The position numbers and the translations under genes were made by a program. Of a stretch of 64,000 nt of DNA, positions 55,704 to 60,855 are shown piece by piece. The DNA comes from Hydrogenovibrio kuenenii DSM 12350. Lineage in GTDB: Bacteria > Pseudomonadota > Gammaproteobacteria > Thiomicrospirales > Thiomicrospiraceae. The notes under the pieces are model-generated. The model was given only the letters and a program-made list of their open reading frames with translations. It was not told the origin of the DNA and did no database searches. Within the stretch, counting starts at the first letter, position 1. Each line of letters opens with the position of its first letter. The stretch lies in the NCBI RefSeq assembly GCF_000526715.1, contig NZ_JAGP01000001.1, positions 310,001 through 374,000 of the forward strand, in the 5' to 3' direction.

Positions 55704-55780
55704 GGCTACATAGCTCAGCTGGTTAGAGCACATCACTCATAATGATGGGGTCCCAGGTTCAAATCCCGGTGTAGCCACCA
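55704..55780 (+). tRNA. tRNA-Met, elongator (anticodon CAT)
   Basis: A 77-nt cloverleaf with encoded CCA. Acceptor GGCTACA pairs with TGTAGCC; the stem CATCA/TGATG encloses CTCATAA with anticodon CAT at 55738-55740. The paired acceptor terminus argues against initiator tRNA. Lysidine-modified tRNA-Ile2 also has CAT but its sequence context differs; not fully excluded. Its 3' end is part of the 48-bp direct repeat bounding the downstream island. Confidence 0.93.
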
Positions 55781-55814
55781 TATTTTAAAACCCGGTTTTA
55801 TACCGGGTTTTTTT
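55767..55814 (+). repeat. 48-bp direct repeat, left copy (attL-like)
   Basis: Starts CGGTGTAGCCACCATATTTT and ends ACCGGGTTTTTTT. It holds the last 14 nt of tRNA-Met plus its terminator hairpin CCCGGT-tttat-ACCGGG. Identical over all 48 bases to 58846-58893. Confidence 0.95.
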
Positions 55815-56103
55815 ATGCCTGAAATTCGCAACAGTTCTTTGTAAGCGCCTTACTTTCTGAGCTAAAGGAAAGAGGAGGGATAAGATGTTGACCGATTTGA
55901 TTGCAAACTCTTCCGTCTAACGAAACAAAAAAACTCCCTCGAATGATTGCGGTTTATGGGGAGCTTCTGGGGGAGGTTAATGAATTATTTTTGGAAATTG
56001 TTTAAAAAAACGTTGGGGCAGCTGCCCCAGTCATTTTATTGTGCTATTTATCGAATGAAGGTTTAATATGCGATAGGTATTCAATATTTTGAGGAAGTTT
56101 TAA
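55815..56103. other. Left leader of the island
   Basis: 289 bp without a complete gene. It contains a perfect 16-bp palindrome TGGGGCAGCTGCCCCA (56014-56029) about 75 bp before the first island gene, a possible operator, and short stop-bounded stretches in three frames (around 55822-55890 and 55897-56002) that read like coding debris, for example KKLPRMIAVYGELLGEVNEL. These may be remnants of a lost gene. Confidence 0.35.
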
Positions 56104-56781
56104 GTGTTATTTTGGATAGGTGTTTTATTTACACTAACTGTTCCCTTTATTTTAAGTATATGCTTTGAAAGTGTGTCGGCCGGTTGGCTTTCAGCTGCAT
56201 GCGGAGCTTTTGTTGTTTTTGCTTCTAAACTTGAGAGAATCGCTGAACTGTCTCTTGGTCCAGTAAAAGCAAAGATGAGAGAAAAAATAGAAGAGGCTTC
56301 AGCTACTATAGAACAGCTCAGAAAGGTTTCTGTGACTATAGCAGAAGCAGAGCTTACTAATTTGATAGCAACAGCTTTTATGGGAAATATGACGCTTGAG
56401 AAAAAGCTAGAAATTCATGATAAAGTCATTGATGAATTGAAAAATATTAATGTGTCAGATGAACAAATTTCCACTGCGGAAGAGTCGTGGAAAAAAGGTA
56501 TTACTGTTATCTATCATAGGGCTATAAGAAACGCCTTAGAAGAAAGACCTCACCCAAGTATTGTTAACGCAGAAATTTCTGATTCTCAAAAGAATGCTGG
56601 CAGGGAGTTACAAGATCTATTGGATTTTGATAATTGGCTTCCTCCAACACCATATCAAATTAGAAAACTTTTGGAAAAGCATGGTATAAGCTCTAGCGCA
56701 GCAGAAGTGTGGATTGATGATTATGAACACTTTCTGAAAACTAATGAAATCAGGAATAGGGAAGAGTTTGTGAGGCAATAA
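56104..56781 (+). CDS. Island gene 1: two-helix membrane protein with coiled coil
   Basis: A 225-residue protein of no family I recognise. Two hydrophobic segments (about 2-20 and 24-42) make an N-terminal hairpin; then a long charged helix KMREKIEEASATIEQLRKVS likely forms a coiled coil; the C-terminal 50 residues include PPTPYQIRKLLEKHGISSSA. GTG start with GAGGA eight bases upstream. Topology would place the bulk in the cytoplasm, as for a sensor or effector. Confidence 0.75.
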   Translation: MLFWIGVLFTLTVPFILSICFESVSAGWLSAACGAFVVFASKLERIAELSLGPVKAKMREKIEEASATIEQLRKVSVTIAEAELTNLIATAFMGNMTLEKKLEIHDKVIDELKNINVSDEQISTAEESWKKGITVIYHRAIRNALEERPHPSIVNAEISDSQKNAGRELQDLLDFDNWLPPTPYQIRKLLEKHGISSSAAEVWIDDYEHFLKTNEIRNREEFVRQ

Positions 56782-56812
56782 AAACGGGTGGTGTTTCATC
56801 TAGCTAATATTA

Positions 56813-57460
56813 ATGGTGGTCAATGTGGAAGACTTTTTGTTAAAAAACTCAAGTGCGATTTTTGCTCTTTCCGGTGCGATTCTTGGTTCATTGCTTACAG
56901 GTCTTATTGGTTATGTTTCTATAACAAAACAAACAAAACTACGCCTAGTCGAGAAAGTATTAGATAGGAAGACAGAAGCCCATGAAGAATTAATCAACTT
57001 TATTGGTGTAATGAGAACGACAGTTCAACTAGGCGGGGTAACAGATGGTGGTGAGCTTAAAAGATGTCCTCTAGCCCTCTTTAGTAGAAAAAACTTTGGA
57101 GACTTCTTATCAGAATTTTCTAGAGTTCAAAACCTATTTGACAGGTGGTTATCTTCTGACATAAAGCGAGAAATAAGCTTATTTATGGATTATTTAGTGC
57201 ATTTGAATGAGTACTCAGGAAATGCATCAGATGACGCCCTTCAAGTAGTCGGCGTGATTATAAAAAATGATTTTTTTACATTTGCTGACGAATTGGATAG
57301 ATACGCACATGTTTTTTTTAATAAAGATATGCTTAGTTTGAAATATAAAACGGATTCGGAGTGGAGTAAGCACTCTGTAGATGTTACTTATCAGAAACTG
57401 GCTGAAACACTGTTATTTAAGAATAAAAAGAAAATTTTAGATATTTTCAACGCGTCTTAA
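56813..57460 (+). CDS. Island gene 2: single-pass membrane protein
   Basis: A 215-residue protein with one N-terminal membrane segment (about 13-36, IFALSGAILGSLLTGLIGYV) and a helical soluble part (KLRLVEKVLDRKTEAHEELI, LFDRWLSSDIKREISLFMDY). No family recognised. The ribosome-binding site is weak; starts at 56816 or 56825 are also possible. 32 bp after gene 1. Confidence 0.7.
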   Translation: MVVNVEDFLLKNSSAIFALSGAILGSLLTGLIGYVSITKQTKLRLVEKVLDRKTEAHEELINFIGVMRTTVQLGGVTDGGELKRCPLALFSRKNFGDFLSEFSRVQNLFDRWLSSDIKREISLFMDYLVHLNEYSGNASDDALQVVGVIIKNDFFTFADELDRYAHVFFNKDMLSLKYKTDSEWSKHSVDVTYQKLAETLLFKNKKKILDIFNAS

Positions 57461-57552
57461 AAAGAAGGTGTAGCTAAATATGAGTTATTGAGTAGCAAAG
57501 ATGTTTTTATATTTTTGTCTGTGGATTTTAATTTGTTCTTTAAAGGAATTCT

Positions 57553-58419
57553 ATGCAATTTATAAACCCTCATTCTGTTAATTATTGGCTGTCTATTTTA
57601 AAAAGAATGTCTACTTCTGGTCAATTTGACGGTGAAAAAGCTCCCGATTTTCTTAGGCCATTTCACTTGGTAACTCTTGCTTTAGCGATAAAAAAACATG
57701 GCATAGATGTGATTGACTTACCGGGTCAGATACAAAGCTATGCAACAAGAATGCATTTATGGGAAGCTGCCGGGTTAGAGCCCCCTTATCAAGTTAATGA
57801 GAATGATCGACGTTTCAGTTTGATTCCAGTTAGGTCGATTGAAGATGTCAAAGATATTGATGAGGTATCTAAGGCATTTGAGGTGATTGCAGCTCATCAT
57901 TATGAAGACGGTTGTTCAAATGATTTTGGTACTGTAATTTCAGAGTTACTTGATAACTGTTATAGACATGCTGAAAGATCAGAAGATTTGTTTGGGCTGG
58001 CTTGTGTTCAAACATGGGAAGGTGGTAATAAAGGTCAGTTATGTATTGCCGATACAGGTATTGGTATTAGATGTGCTTTAGGTCAAAACGAAGACCTTTT
58101 GGAAAGGTTAAATTACGATAATGCATGTCAAATGGCAACGGAATTTGGTGTGTCAGGAAAGTTAGGTAAAGGGCATTCCGGTTATGGTTTAGCTTTAGCA
58201 AAAGGGGTTATTGATTTAAATTGTGGTAAATTATTGGTGATTTCTGGCGATGAAGGGTTTGAATCATGTGCTGGCGTTTCTCGTACATTTGGTTTAAAAT
58301 CTAGATGGGATGGCACAGTTGTAATTCTAGAATGGAATCTTGACCAACCTCTTGATTCTCTGCCTGTTTATGAATCTTGGCCTTCGGAGGAAGATGATGA
58401 ATACGATGACATGTTTTAA
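57553..58419 (+). CDS. Island gene 3: GHKL ATPase with STAS-like N-terminal region
   Basis: A 288-residue soluble protein. The N-terminal 110 residues include PDFLRPFHLVTLALAIKKHG and LPGQIQSYATRMHLWEAAG, a pattern I associate with STAS-like regions fused to ATPases. The GHKL ATPase follows: N box VISELLDNCYRHAE (about 134), G1 IADTGIGIR (about 170), G2 GKGHSGYGLALAKGVIDLNCG (split: GHSGYGLALAKG, about 216). No His-kinase phosphoacceptor. The C-terminus is very acidic (PSEEDDEYDDMF). AAGGA five bases before the ATG. Related logic: SpoIIAB/RsbW-type anti-sigma kinases. Confidence 0.85.
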   Translation: MQFINPHSVNYWLSILKRMSTSGQFDGEKAPDFLRPFHLVTLALAIKKHGIDVIDLPGQIQSYATRMHLWEAAGLEPPYQVNENDRRFSLIPVRSIEDVKDIDEVSKAFEVIAAHHYEDGCSNDFGTVISELLDNCYRHAERSEDLFGLACVQTWEGGNKGQLCIADTGIGIRCALGQNEDLLERLNYDNACQMATEFGVSGKLGKGHSGYGLALAKGVIDLNCGKLLVISGDEGFESCAGVSRTFGLKSRWDGTVVILEWNLDQPLDSLPVYESWPSEEDDEYDDMF

Positions 58420-58690
58420 GGTTGTTTTCCCTGAAGTTTTTCCTCAATTAGCTTCTCGTGAAGCAGGAGAGGAAGCTCGCAGGTTTTTAAGAAAAAAAAT
58501 GAAAGAACACGAGTGTTTAGTTTTTGATTTAGCAAATAAGAACTTGACTCCTTCATTTGTTGATTCCAGCTTGGCTGTGTTGATGAGTGAAGTTGGTTAT
58601 GACGTGTTCAAACAGAAAGTTAAGTTTGATAATGCAAATGAAACAACCAAAATCCTGATTAAAAAAACCTTTTCTGAAAGAAAAAAGTGA
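58397..58690 (+). CDS. Island gene 4: STAS-like (DUF4325-type) small protein
   Basis: A 97-residue protein. The ATG at 58397 is chosen because GGAGG ends six bases before it; the frame extends upstream but without a site. It overlaps gene 3 by 23 bp, so the two are translationally coupled. LVFDLANKNLTPSFVDSSLA resembles the beta-strand/helix centre of STAS-like DUF4325 proteins, with conserved VDSSLAVLM where STAS antagonists carry the phosphorylatable Ser. Probable partner of the GHKL ATPase. Confidence 0.75.
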   Translation: MNTMTCFKVVFPEVFPQLASREAGEEARRFLRKKMKEHECLVFDLANKNLTPSFVDSSLAVLMSEVGYDVFKQKVKFDNANETTKILIKKTFSERKK

Positions 58691-58845
58691 TTTTAAGAAA
58701 ATATTGAATTTATATAGCCCGCATTTGCGGGCTTTTTTATTTTTTTAATTAGGGAGCAAAAATATTTTTGGCGGTATTTATTACGGTATTAGCTGTAGAT
58801 AAGTATAGAAAATAAAACAAAGAGGTAGACGTTTGTCTTGAATTA
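58691..58845. other. Right end of the island
   Basis: No gene. It holds the gene 4 terminator and two direct heptamers CGGTATT at 58772-58778 and 58784-58790, 12 bp apart, possible recombinase arm or operator sites close to the right repeat. Confidence 0.4.
58716..58738 (+). terminator. Rho-independent terminator of the island operon
   Basis: AGCCCGCA-TT-TGCGGGCT followed by TTTTT: strong stem 26 bp after the last island gene. Confidence 0.88.
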
Positions 58846-58893
58846 CGGTGTAGCCACCATATTTTAAAACCCGGTTTTATACCGGGTTTTTTT
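58846..58893 (+). repeat. 48-bp direct repeat, right copy (attR-like)
   Basis: Perfect copy of 55767-55814: a 14-nt tRNA-Met 3' fragment with CCA plus the tRNA terminator. The flanking bases differ on both sides, fixing the repeat ends. Confidence 0.95.
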
Positions 58894-59001
58894 GTTTATA
58901 AAATAAATAAAATGGACTTTTTTACTTATTCCGATTAAATTACCCGTTACGCACATTTATAGAAAGTCATAATAATAAAATAAAATTTTTGGGGTGGAGA
59001 C

Positions 59002-60855
59002 TTGATATTAAATTGGGATGAATTTACTCGTCGTTTTGTGCTTGTGGCTGTCGTTGTGCTCCTGTCTTCGGTGTTTTTCTTAAACACATTTTTCAATTCA
59101 CAAATTACGTTAGCCGAAAAAAATGAAATTAATCAGTATGAAGGTTATCTGCATGAAACCATCGGTAATTTAGTACGTCAAAAACAAGCGACAACGCAAG
59201 TGTTGGCGATTGCACTTTCCAATTCGATGGATTTTCGAACTGTCCTAAAAACACGCCCTGCTGACTTGCATCAGAGACTCAAAAAATTTACAGATGAACT
59301 GGCTTTACACACGGATTATAAGTCGATTTGGATTCAAGTTATTGATACCAAAGGGGTGAGTATTGGTCGAAGCTGGACAAAAGCTTCGGGTGATAATTTA
59401 TCGATGATCCGTAAAGACATTGCTGATGTTTTGCGTAACCCAAGAAAAATCAATAATTTTAGTGTGGGGAAGTTCTCGCTGACATTTAAATCACTCGCCC
59501 CCATTTTTGACCGTAACGGTAAATTATTGGGAATTTTGGATGTTATTTCTCAAGTCGATTCTATTGACAGAGACTTACAGTCTGGCAGCGGTGTTGAGTC
59601 AGTAGTTTTGGTAGATAAACGATACAAAAATCAGCTCACTAAGGCTCGTACTGGGCAATTTATAGGTGGTTATTATGTGGCCAATGCGGGTGTGCCAAAT
59701 AGCATTTTGCAACTGATTTCGAATTATGGTGCTGATAAGATCTTTCACTCAAAGAACCATGAAGTTATTGATGGCAAGCTAGTGATTGCGACACCATTAA
59801 AGAATATTCTGGGTGAAAAGATAGCGGTTTGGGTTAGCTTTAAGCCGATGCAAGTTATTGATTTGACGAATACCCATCAGTTGTATAAAAACTACACATT
59901 GGCAATGGCAGGGACCGTATTATTTTTATTGCTCTCGATGTTGTTGTTTTACTTTAAGAAAAAGTCTGATCTTGAACGCCACTTTTTTTACCAAATTTTC
60001 GATGAGTCTTCCGAAATTATTTATGTAACCGATCGTCACAAAGTTGTTCAAGCTAATAGACAGTTTTTTAACCTATTTGAAGATGTTAACTCCGTAGAAG
60101 CCTTTAATGATCAATATGATTGTTTGAGTAGCATTCTAATCGAAGAGGAAGGTTATTTAACTCGTTATGTTGATGGTATTGTGTGGTATGAATATTTGTT
60201 GCAGGACGACCACAAGACTTTGTTGGCAAAGTTGGAAACCAAAGATGGTGTTAGAACATTCAAGGTGAAGGTCAACTCGATTAATAATCGTATTGGAAGT
60301 GACTATGTTAGTGTGTTGCTGACAGATATCACTGAAGAGGTTCATTATAAAGAAGAGTTGGAGCACTTGATTATTCATGATGAGTTAACGGGTGTTTATA
60401 ATCGACATTACTTTAATGAGGCTTTGGAAGAAGAAATTAAGCGCGCACACCGTTATCAAGTACCTTTTTCGATGATTTCTTTTGATGTTGATCATTTCAA
60501 AAGTGTTAATGATGATTTTGGTCATGATATTGGAGACAATGTATTGATTCGTTTAACGAAAGAGGTTGCTCGCAGCTTAAGAGATACAGATAAGTTGTGT
60601 CGTGTTGGTGGTGAAGAGTTCTGTATTTTAATGCCAGAAACTGACCTGGAAGATGCCACTGTAACTGCTGAACGTTTAAGAAAATCAGTCCAAGAAATTC
60701 CTTATTCTGATGTACCTAGAGCGGTAACGGTCAGTTTAGGGGTCACTAAGTTAAACCGTTGGGATAATGCCTCTACGCTGTACAAACGTTCGGACATTGC
60801 TTTGTATCAAGCAAAAGGTAATGGCCGAAACCGTGTTGAAGTTATTTCCAGCTAG
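59002..60855 (+). CDS. Membrane diguanylate cyclase with periplasmic sensor and PAS domain
   Basis: A 617-residue protein. Membrane segment about 12-30, periplasmic Cache-like sensor to about 295, second membrane segment about 298-318, PAS-like domain about 328-440, then GGDEF domain (about 455-615) with HDELTGVYNRHYFNEAL and active site RVGGEEF. RDTD five residues before GGEEF is an inhibitory I-site, so product feedback is expected. TTG start is assumed, with GGGGTGG upstream. It lies just outside the island. Confidence 0.88.
   Translation: MILNWDEFTRRFVLVAVVVLLSSVFFLNTFFNSQITLAEKNEINQYEGYLHETIGNLVRQKQATTQVLAIALSNSMDFRTVLKTRPADLHQRLKKFTDELALHTDYKSIWIQVIDTKGVSIGRSWTKASGDNLSMIRKDIADVLRNPRKINNFSVGKFSLTFKSLAPIFDRNGKLLGILDVISQVDSIDRDLQSGSGVESVVLVDKRYKNQLTKARTGQFIGGYYVANAGVPNSILQLISNYGADKIFHSKNHEVIDGKLVIATPLKNILGEKIAVWVSFKPMQVIDLTNTHQLYKNYTLAMAGTVLFLLLSMLLFYFKKKSDLERHFFYQIFDESSEIIYVTDRHKVVQANRQFFNLFEDVNSVEAFNDQYDCLSSILIEEEGYLTRYVDGIVWYEYLLQDDHKTLLAKLETKDGVRTFKVKVNSINNRIGSDYVSVLLTDITEEVHYKEELEHLIIHDELTGVYNRHYFNEALEEEIKRAHRYQVPFSMISFDVDHFKSVNDDFGHDIGDNVLIRLTKEVARSLRDTDKLCRVGGEEFCILMPETDLEDATVTAERLRKSVQEIPYSDVPRAVTVSLGVTKLNRWDNASTLYKRSDIALYQAKGNGRNRVEVISS

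What the first reader, a model, noticed from the sequence alone, without database searches (positions are those of the whole stretch)
57553..58690. Coupled GHKL ATPase and STAS-like protein: a candidate partner-switching or conflict module
Gene 3 has intact N, G1 and G2 ATP-binding boxes and a STAS-like N-terminal region but no histidine-kinase phosphoacceptor. Gene 4 overlaps it by 23 bp with its own ribosome-binding site and has a STAS-like (DUF4325-type) core. This parallels the SpoIIAB/SpoIIAA and RsbW/RsbV logic, but with no sigma factor nearby and on a mobile island. A role in phage defence or stress sensing is inference.
Basis: partly seen in the sequence, partly recalled or inferred. 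Interest (0 to 1): 0.78.

Follow-up and report, generated by a model that had tools for sequence, protein, structure and literature searches.

The report
Orphan kinase and STAS switch pair
A small mobile islet in a bacterium carries a kinase gene and its likely protein target that resemble a recently described DNA-damage alarm of bacterial immune systems, but without any of the known parts that the alarm is wired to.

Summary
In detail: gene 3 (57553-58419) is a GHKL protein with intact N, G1 and G2 boxes; gene 4 (ATG 58397-58690, 23-bp overlap, own ribosome-binding site) is STAS-like. The gene 3 model is closest to SpoIIAB and RsbW; the gene 4 model matches mostly STAS domains, with Ser53 near the start of a helix. 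The pair sits on a 3.08-kb islet between a 48-bp duplication of a tRNA-Met 3' end. That site is empty in one congener and holds other cargo, including defence genes, in others. The closest known systems are CapK/CapS and VapKSC (PMC13373217), where a STAS-GHKL kinase phosphorylates, or is inferred to phosphorylate, a STAS protein after DNA damage. Both proteins are homologous to VapK and VapS, but the pair fails defining features of both systems: no HTH on the kinase, no winged helix or inhibitory tail on the STAS protein, no PIN toxin. It belongs to a separate, well-supported clade of pairs (5 of 5 without a detected PIN gene). These kinases, like VapKs, end in a tail with a terminal aromatic residue, often acidic, recalling SSB. 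Most likely a kinase-substrate switch with unknown output: a new variant of a known kind. Phosphorylation, ssDNA sensing and defence are inferred.

The parts
55704..55780 (+). tRNA-Met (CAT), integration site of the islet
   Evidence: ARAGORN; same tRNA downstream of ychF in congeners
55767..55814 (+). left copy of the 48-bp att repeat (last 14 nt of the tRNA plus its terminator)
   Evidence: direct repeat D1; 48 of 48 identical to the right copy
55852..56024 (+). decayed remnant of a mobile-element gene, shared (81% over 178 bp) with the islet at the same site in congener G012
   Evidence: blastn; the peptide read from G012 hits Pfam HTH_56 (Cch helix-turn-helix) at E 5.1e-4, 20.5 bits, below its cut-off of 26.2; the frame is broken in the window
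56104..56781 (+). gene 1: 225 aa, hydrophobic N-terminus (probable membrane anchor); accessory, rare
   Evidence: 36% homologue on Burkholderia plasmid pBMC401; 2 of 274 class genomes incl. its own, the other match short and broken by stops
56813..57460 (+). gene 2: 215 aa, hydrophobic N-terminal segment (probable membrane anchor); possible output partner, not found beside the pair in its relatives
   Evidence: 28% homologue on a Leptospira plasmid, about 1.6 kb from a Shedu SduA-domain gene; 1 of 274 class genomes, its own
57553..58419 (+). gene 3: STAS-like N-domain plus SpoIIAB/RsbW-like GHKL domain (model residues 87-265), ending EEDDEYDDMF
   Evidence: C-terminal tail
58386..58391 (+). 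GGAGGA ribosome-binding site of gene 4, inside gene 3
   Evidence: sequence
58397..58690 (+). gene 4: 97-aa STAS-like protein, candidate phosphoacceptor Ser53 (codon 58553-58555), second residue of helix 52-66
58716..58733 (+). terminator-like hairpin after gene 4
   Evidence: pattern scan; 4 terminator-like sites found in 55781-58900, mean 2.1 in shuffles
58846..58893 (+). right copy of the 48-bp att repeat

Best explanation
Gene 3 and gene 4 are a kinase-substrate switch of the CapK/VapK superfamily. Gene 3 is an ATP-dependent protein serine kinase built as a STAS-like N-domain plus a SpoIIAB-like GHKL domain. When it meets single-stranded DNA made by DNA damage or phage infection, it phosphorylates gene 4 at or beside Ser53, near the start of the helix that carries the acceptor in STAS antagonists. 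In the resting state gene 4 binds and restrains, or is bound by, a target; phosphorylation switches that binding. Unlike CapS it has no winged helix to bind DNA, and unlike VapS it lacks the tail that blocks a PIN toxin, so its target is something else: most likely a host protein, because the close relatives carry the pair without a shared third gene, or in this islet possibly a membrane protein encoded by gene 2 or gene 1. SHOWN: genes, boxes, predicted folds, homology to VapK and VapS, a conserved serine, no PIN gene detected, a mobile setting. INFERRED: phosphorylation, ssDNA as the trigger, the direction of the switch, and a role in defence.
For: Profile-profile match of the gene 3 clade to five PIN-linked kinases, 98.5%, E 2.8e-15 over 221 columns including part of the N-domain, and of gene 4 to their STAS proteins, 91%, E 1e-6. 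The best PDB sequence hit of the gene 4 profile is Escherichia VapS 9z7o, E 3.8e-4, the next 0.27. GHKL fold nearest SpoIIAB (Z 13.3, rmsd 2.6 over 135 residues), RsbW (Z 12.7) and UsfX (Z 11.4); LvrC 10.1, topoisomerases and gyrases 9.0 and below. Gene 4 model pLDDT 82.9; 36 of 50 structural matches, including the first 23, are proteins with a STAS domain (SLC26 transporters, RsbS 7.3, SpoIIAA 6.8), each under Z 8 (which proteins carry STAS is partly recalled). Ser at the column of Ser53 in 11 of 14 aligned gene 4 homologues. Overlapping pair in 5 of 5 clade members, with no neighbour shared between any two of them at E 1e-3 within 3.5 kb, where held. PMC13373217 (sections 7, 11, 13, 14, 17 read) shows CapK phosphorylating CapS on ssDNA activation, and VapKSC phage protection that needs VapS S48.
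Against: No biochemistry. HMMER aligns Ser53 with the residue that I take as VapS S48 (chain residue 66, assuming an 18-residue tag), but hhalign sets the VapS acceptor one residue earlier, and the three VapS homologues in the 14-row alignment have A, A and P at the Ser53 column. Ser53 as acceptor is likely, not proven. The gene 3 model is of moderate confidence (pLDDT 67.9, pTM 0.72) and poor at 170-209, which covers much of the G2 region. For the paper's VapK, ssDNA activation itself was not shown biochemically. No complex was modelled. No output partner is identified.
Confidence: 0.6

Rival explanations
1. Four-gene membrane effector system: genes 1 and/or 2 are membrane-anchored effectors held silent by unphosphorylated gene 4, and the kinase releases them, as VapK is thought to release VapC.
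For: All four genes are on one strand in a 3.08-kb islet, gene 3 starting 92 nt after gene 2. Both have hydrophobic N-termini. In other DUF4325 loci a protein of about 150 aa with one hydrophobic N-terminal segment follows the STAS gene (L052, L054, L066, L070). In the prophage L093 a 599-aa frame with a hydrophobic N-terminus lies 12 nt upstream of the kinase frame.
Against: Gene 1 and gene 2 queries find no homologue beside the pairs of the four other clade members (phmmer, E up to 0.1); the one weak hit, gene 1 at E 0.04 in L002/L031, is 2.6 kb downstream on the other strand. Genes 1 and 2 show no significant similarity to the TM proteins of the other loci (best E 0.07). On the plasmids the gene 1 and gene 2 homologues have no kinase or STAS profile hit in the 8.6-kb stretches held.
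Confidence: 0.2
2. Classical sigma partner switch: gene 3 is an anti-sigma factor for a chromosomal sigma factor and gene 4 its antagonist, acquired as a regulatory cargo.
For: Closest folds are SpoIIAB, RsbW and UsfX; gene 4 has a STAS-like fold and a conserved Ser.
Against: No sigma family among the four islet genes. The best sequence kin with a known role are VapK and VapS, which act on a toxin (PMC13373217). Gene 3 carries an extra STAS-like N-domain. Rare distribution, partly on viral contigs. Sigma genes elsewhere in the genome were not tested.
Confidence: 0.08
3. Degraded remnant: the pair is a VapKSC or CapKS system that lost its third component, and the islet is decaying.
For: No integrase and a broken mobile-gene remnant at the left end. 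No PIN gene by a VapC-derived profile in the window plus 11 kb further right.
Against: All key boxes are intact. The clade is supported at 100/100 and the PIN-linked kinases form a separate group at 100/99; 5 of 5 members lack a detected PIN gene, so the loss would be old and common, not a local accident (with short flanks in two).
Confidence: 0.1

Closest known systems
VapKSC (Chambers et al., EMBO J 2026, PMC13373217)
   Same: STAS-GHKL kinase without HTH followed by a STAS protein in one operon; homology of both proteins; kinase tail ending in an aromatic residue
   Different: No VapC/PIN gene detected; gene 4 (97 aa) lacks the C-terminal region 94-116 that VapS needs to block VapC; separate clade; acceptor serine one position off in the profile alignment
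CapK/CapS (same paper)
   Same: GHKL kinase with an N-terminal STAS-like domain paired with a downstream STAS protein; the tRNA site takes defence cargo in congeners
   Different: No HTH found on gene 3; no wHTH on gene 4 (CapS has 184 aa); no immune operon downstream: terminator, att repeat and a chromosomal GGDEF gene follow
SpoIIAB/SpoIIAA and RsbW/RsbV partner switches
   Same: GHKL kinase fold (Z 13.3 and 12.7), STAS-like partner with a conserved Ser near the start of a helix
   Different: Extra STAS-like N-domain, no sigma gene in the islet, mobile setting
Pfam DUF4325 (PF14213), 'STAS-like domain of unknown function'
   Same: Gene 4 matches at the cut-off (22.8 and 23 bits against 23)
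   Different: Marginal member; several other DUF4325 domains are fused to the GHKL domain or followed by other genes

Membership tests
VapKSC | Kinase homologous to VapK (STAS-GHKL, no HTH) | tested here: met
   hhalign of the clade against five PIN-linked kinases: 98.5% probability, E 2.8e-15, 221 columns
VapKSC | STAS substrate homologous to VapS with a conserved Ser/Thr | tested here: met
   hhalign 91%, E 1e-6; PDB VapS 9z7o E 3.8e-4; Ser present, but its register against VapS S48 is uncertain by one residue
VapKSC | VapS C-terminal region (94-116) that blocks VapC | tested here: not met
   gene 4 ends at residue 97; the five PIN-linked STAS proteins have 112-121 residues. One clade relative, L078, has 110
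VapKSC | VapC-like PIN gene in the operon | tested here: not met
   a profile of three PIN-linked VapCs finds two further ones, but none in the window, the 11 kb to its right, or the stretches held of four clade relatives. The same profile does not hit a PIN-like start seen by eye in L040, so a diverged PIN could be missed
CapK/CapS | HTH domain at the N-terminus of the kinase | tested here: not met
   no HTH family listed for gene 3; gene 3 starts directly with the region aligned to the STAS part of relatives
CapK/CapS | Winged helix on the STAS protein and an adjacent immune operon | tested here: not met
   gene 4 is 97 aa, one STAS-like fold; terminator-like hairpin and att repeat follow
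CapK/CapS and VapKSC | Aromatic ssDNA-contact residue (CapK W68 / VapK F54) and ssDNA-activated kinase activity | not testable with these tools
   CapK and E4736 VapK sequences were not obtained; W70 is only a candidate; activity needs bench work
SpoIIAB/RsbW partner switch | SpoIIAB-like GHKL kinase fold | tested here: met
   the top nine rows are five SpoIIAB, two RsbW and two SigF-type anti-sigma (UsfX) entries, Z 10.2-13.3
SpoIIAB/RsbW partner switch | Cognate sigma factor encoded with the pair | tested here: not met
   Pfam on all four islet genes shows no sigma family; sigma genes elsewhere in the genome were not tested
DUF4325 (PF14213) | Score over the Pfam gathering threshold | tested here: inconclusive
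   22.8 and 23 bits marked over the cut-off against 23
tRNA-targeted genomic island | Flanking direct repeats from the tRNA 3' end, empty and alternative sites in relatives | tested here: met
tRNA-targeted genomic island | Own integrase | tested here: not met
   none among the four islet genes; integrases with Arm-DNA-bind_3 lie beside the same tRNA in four congeners

The most novel reading that the evidence does not exclude
Stand-alone kinase-STAS pairs are a distinct, complete two-gene alarm of mobile elements and prophages, wired to a host target rather than to a co-encoded toxin or repressor. The aromatic-tipped, often acidic C-terminus of these kinases imitates the SSB C-terminal tip, either filling the ssDNA groove to keep the kinase off until real ssDNA displaces it, or docking the kinase on SSB-binding repair proteins.
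Probability: 0.2. Interest if true: 0.75.

Novelty: new variant of a known kind. Interest (0 to 1): 0.5.

Why it matters
CapKS and VapKSC showed that bacteria wire a GHKL kinase and a STAS protein to different outputs in response to DNA damage. The 2026 VapKSC survey kept the cases that contain all of vapK, vapS and vapC (its Bioinformatics section), so pairs without VapC fell outside that set. If such pairs act alone they point to a third, unknown output of the same alarm, and the small two-gene unit makes it easy to test. The conserved aromatic C-terminal tip suggests a testable way in which these kinases could be kept off or brought to damaged DNA.

Tried and rejected
Literature (full-text library only): DUF4325 gives 2 papers (listing only); 'STAS-like' with GHKL gives 0; two of three among STAS domain, histidine kinase-like ATPase and phage defence give 5, listing only except PMC13373217; STAS, anti-phage and GHKL together give only that paper; VapKSC and CapK/CapS/STAS give only it; 'STAS-like domain' gives 2 other papers (listing only); three of GHKL, STAS domain, toxin-antitoxin and partner switching give only PMC13373217; a search on acidic C-terminal tails gave one plant paper, listing only.

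DISARM link: a PADLOC DrmA profile matches gene 3 and gene 4 near its N-terminus, but the 3 hits of that profile among 150 genomes cover only later parts (662-1726, 991-1396 and 1502-1608 of 1750), so a DISARM link is not supported.

Homologue searches with little yield: phages with gene 3, 2 records; plasmids with gene 3, none; phages with gene 4, none, and with the L078 STAS protein, none; plasmids with a VapK, one Deinococcus plasmid; E. coli genomes with a VapKSC operon, none; viral contigs with a VapK, two fusions and gene 2, none; order of G416, 2 of 5 genomes, nothing new in the clade; phylum sample, 12 of 398 genomes at E 1e-8, none new in the window's clade.

C-terminal tail as a by-product of gene overlap: rejected as the whole cause, because kinases that do not overlap their STAS gene also end in an aromatic (L042, L055, L056, L058, gaps; L099, gap; tails). 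Left out of the 15 tails counted: fusions, kinase-like frames without a STAS hit in the locus (L010, L041, L059, L064, L082, L084, L088, L091) and the seven named in the report; of the frames without a STAS hit, L084 ends FL and would count as aromatic, the others would not. The gene 3 model gives no support for tail docking: residues 277-288 have pLDDT under 50. MutL/MORC-like or gyrase-like ATPase: these folds rank lower. The natural kinase-STAS fusion L040 was not modelled, because it came from the genome search, which the structure tool does not list as a permitted source. Foldseek alone gave no PDB match at E 0.001 or better for either model.

Full report
WHAT IS THERE. Four genes on one strand lie in a 3.08-kb islet between a tRNA-Met gene (55704-55780) and a chromosomal gene that I read as a GGDEF protein by eye (59002-60855): gene 1 (56104-56781), gene 2 (56813-57460), gene 3 (57553-58419) and gene 4 (ATG 58397-58690). 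Genes 3 and 4 overlap by 23 bp and GGAGGA at 58386-58391 suits gene 4. A terminator-like hairpin follows at 58716-58733.

MOBILITY. A 48-bp stretch made of the last 14 nt of the tRNA plus its terminator is repeated exactly at 55767-55814 and 58846-58893. All 11 genomes of the genus, the window's own included, match the tRNA region. A second, partial copy of the repeat further on marks an occupied site in 6 of 11: the window's own genome (3.1 kb), G012 (2.9 kb, 87% over 47 bp), and, with weaker copies (75-79% over about 50-65 bp), G005 (about 14 kb), G009 (about 15 kb), G014 and G010 (about 30 kb each). G007 is empty: tRNA then the same GGDEF gene, without a second copy. G006, G008, G011 and G013 showed no second copy in the stretches that I read, of which G011 (2.3 kb, contig end) and G006 (3.1 kb) are short. 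Tyrosine integrases with Arm-DNA-bind_3 sit beside the tRNA in G005, G009, G014 and G010. The window islet has none; the G012 islet shows frames of 94, 109 and 367 aa, the last a Fic protein, the two small ones not scanned. Both short islets share a 178-bp left-end remnant, 81% identical; read from G012 it resembles a Cch-type helix-turn-helix below the Pfam cut-off. Of nine cargo proteins from four congeners that I scanned with PADLOC, seven hit: two type II methyltransferases and PDC-M33A in G005, type I methyltransferase and restriction enzyme in G009, SoFic in G012 and a WYL regulator (a CRISPR-associated model) in G014; two G014 proteins had no hit. The nine were chosen by eye, so this shows that the site takes defence-type cargo, not how often.

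GENE 3. HATPase_c scores over the Pfam cut-off. Foldseek alone gave SpoIIAB first at E 1.4e-3. The N-terminal part aligns with a Marinitoga phage MPV1 homologue (E 6.1e-16) that scores as STAS in Pfam (25.1 bits, cut-off 22.6) in that part. Gene 3 itself gives no STAS hit.

GENE 4. A single 97-residue STAS-like fold (pLDDT 82.9). Of 50 structural matches shown, 36, including the first 23, are proteins with a STAS domain (partly recalled), all with Z under 8: SLC26A11 7.9, TM1442 7.4, RsbS 7.3, SpoIIAA 6.8; the other 14 are unrelated ATPases, peptidases and the like. Foldseek alone gave only weak matches, with unrelated proteins mixed in. Ser53 is the second residue of helix 52-66, is invariant in four clade members and is Ser in 11 of 14 wider homologues; the three exceptions are PIN-linked VapS homologues with A, A and P there, which have Ser one position earlier.

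THE CLADE. Close relatives of gene 3 are rare: 1 of 62 genomes of the family, the window's own; 7 of 369 of the class at E 1e-3, of which three (own, G416, G174) match over nearly the whole length; one genome contig and two IMG/VR contigs, one of them matching as the genome contig does. In all five distinct members (window, Herbaspirillum sp. L002/L031, G416, G174, L078) a STAS gene follows with an overlap of 17-23 bp, given the start codons that I chose. Among 138 neighbouring frames of at least 60 aa within 3.5 kb, where that much is held, none is shared between any two of the five loci at E 1e-3.

RELATION TO KNOWN SYSTEMS. In PMC13373217 (abstract, find passages, and sections 7, 11, 13, 14 and 17 read) CapK (HTH-STAS-GHKL) is activated by ssDNA and phosphorylates CapS (STAS-wHTH) on Ser54, which lifts repression of immune operons; in VapKSC the authors infer that a STAS-GHKL kinase phosphorylates VapS (STAS plus a C-terminal helix) to release the PIN toxin VapC, and the operon protects E. 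coli from one phage. I recognised five VapKSC loci by gene order and PIN homology: L055, L058, L099 and L042, with PIN over the Pfam cut-off, and L056, with PIN below it but hit by the VapC profile at E 2.7e-24. Gene 3 and its clade against these kinases give hhalign E 2.8e-15; gene 4 against their STAS proteins gives E 1e-6 at 91%; the gene 4 profile's best PDB sequence is Escherichia VapS 9z7o, E 3.8e-4. In an IQ-TREE tree of 25 kinases the PIN-linked five form one group (100/99) and the window's five another (100/100); deeper branching is unresolved (8 open forks of 22) and CapK is not in the tree because no CapK sequence was available. A profile of three VapCs recovers the two others and finds none, up to E 1, beside the window pair, its four clade relatives, or five further pairs (L003, L004, L101, L102, L103). 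Flanks were short in some: the G174 contig is 5 kb and L078 ends 1.6 kb downstream. The profile also misses a 165-aa gene beside the fusion in L040 whose start looks PIN-like by eye, so diverged PINs could escape it. The window's genome holds one VapK-like match at E 1e-8 and one DUF4325 match, both in this islet.

THE C-TERMINAL TIP. Among 15 kinases of this kind with a separate STAS gene, 14 have an aromatic in the last two residues, against 12.3% of 324 other open frames of at least 150 aa from the same loci (scored the same way, a terminal Met also counting); 10 of 15 also have at least three acidic residues in the last ten, against 1.5%. The comparison set is made of mechanically called frames and the 15 are related to each other, so these figures are descriptive. 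The exception is L004. The tip persists where the kinase gene does not overlap the STAS gene (L042, L055, L056, L058; L099), although L050, L055, L056 and L058 have only one or two acidic residues. Seven kinases that I place apart by context and sequence (L052, L054, L057, L066, L067, L072, L074; only L052, L054 and L074 are in the tree) do not end this way. The resemblance to the SSB C-terminal tip (DDDIPF) is recalled, not from a call. SSB does not occur in the main text of PMC13373217.

GENES 1 AND 2. Both begin with a hydrophobic stretch (best 19-residue means 2.35 and 1.94). Homologues are rare: gene 2 in 1 of 274 class genomes (its own) and on three Leptospira plasmid records, about 1.6 kb from a Shedu-domain gene in the one that I opened; gene 1 in 2 of 274 (own, plus a short match broken by stops) and on one Burkholderia and one Sinorhizobium record. 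They could be outputs of the switch, but were not found travelling with it.

VERDICT. The module is a stand-alone variant of the CapK/VapK superfamily; its output is unknown. Phosphorylation, ssDNA activation and defence are inferred from homologues.

Noticed in passing
window 55704-58893; L034, L035, L037, L038-L039, L046-L047: The tRNA-Met downstream of ychF is an integration hotspot of the genus, occupied in 6 of 11 genomes, with integrase-bearing islands of about 14-30 kb and two short islets that share a left-end remnant.
   Followed up: partly
L052:1724-2188, L054:1750-2193, L066:1740-2216, L070:943-1395: In other DUF4325 loci a small protein with one hydrophobic N-terminal segment directly follows the STAS gene; L052 and L054 are similar (E 1e-5); no Pfam family over its cut-off. 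The L070 kinase passes HATPase_c_2 (27.6, cut-off 27.4); the other three stay below the cut-offs.
   Followed up: partly
L093:2150-3949: In the Marinitoga prophage contig a 599-aa frame with a hydrophobic N-terminus lies 12 nt upstream of the kinase frame; in the GenBank MPV1 record (L003) the same stretch is annotated as three shorter genes.
   Followed up: no
L097:1586-4597: A homologue of window gene 2 lies about 1.6 kb from a Shedu SduA-domain gene on a Leptospira plasmid.
   Followed up: no
L040:3867-5564: A natural kinase-STAS fusion (389 aa) lies just downstream of a 165-aa gene whose start looks PIN-like by eye (MTICLVDTSIFCNI); no Pfam hit for the latter up to E 0.5.
   Followed up: no
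L035:9025-10884: The congener G005 island carries a PDC-M33A protein (PADLOC candidate, E 2e-100) next to two cytosine-type methyltransferases at the same tRNA site.
   Followed up: no
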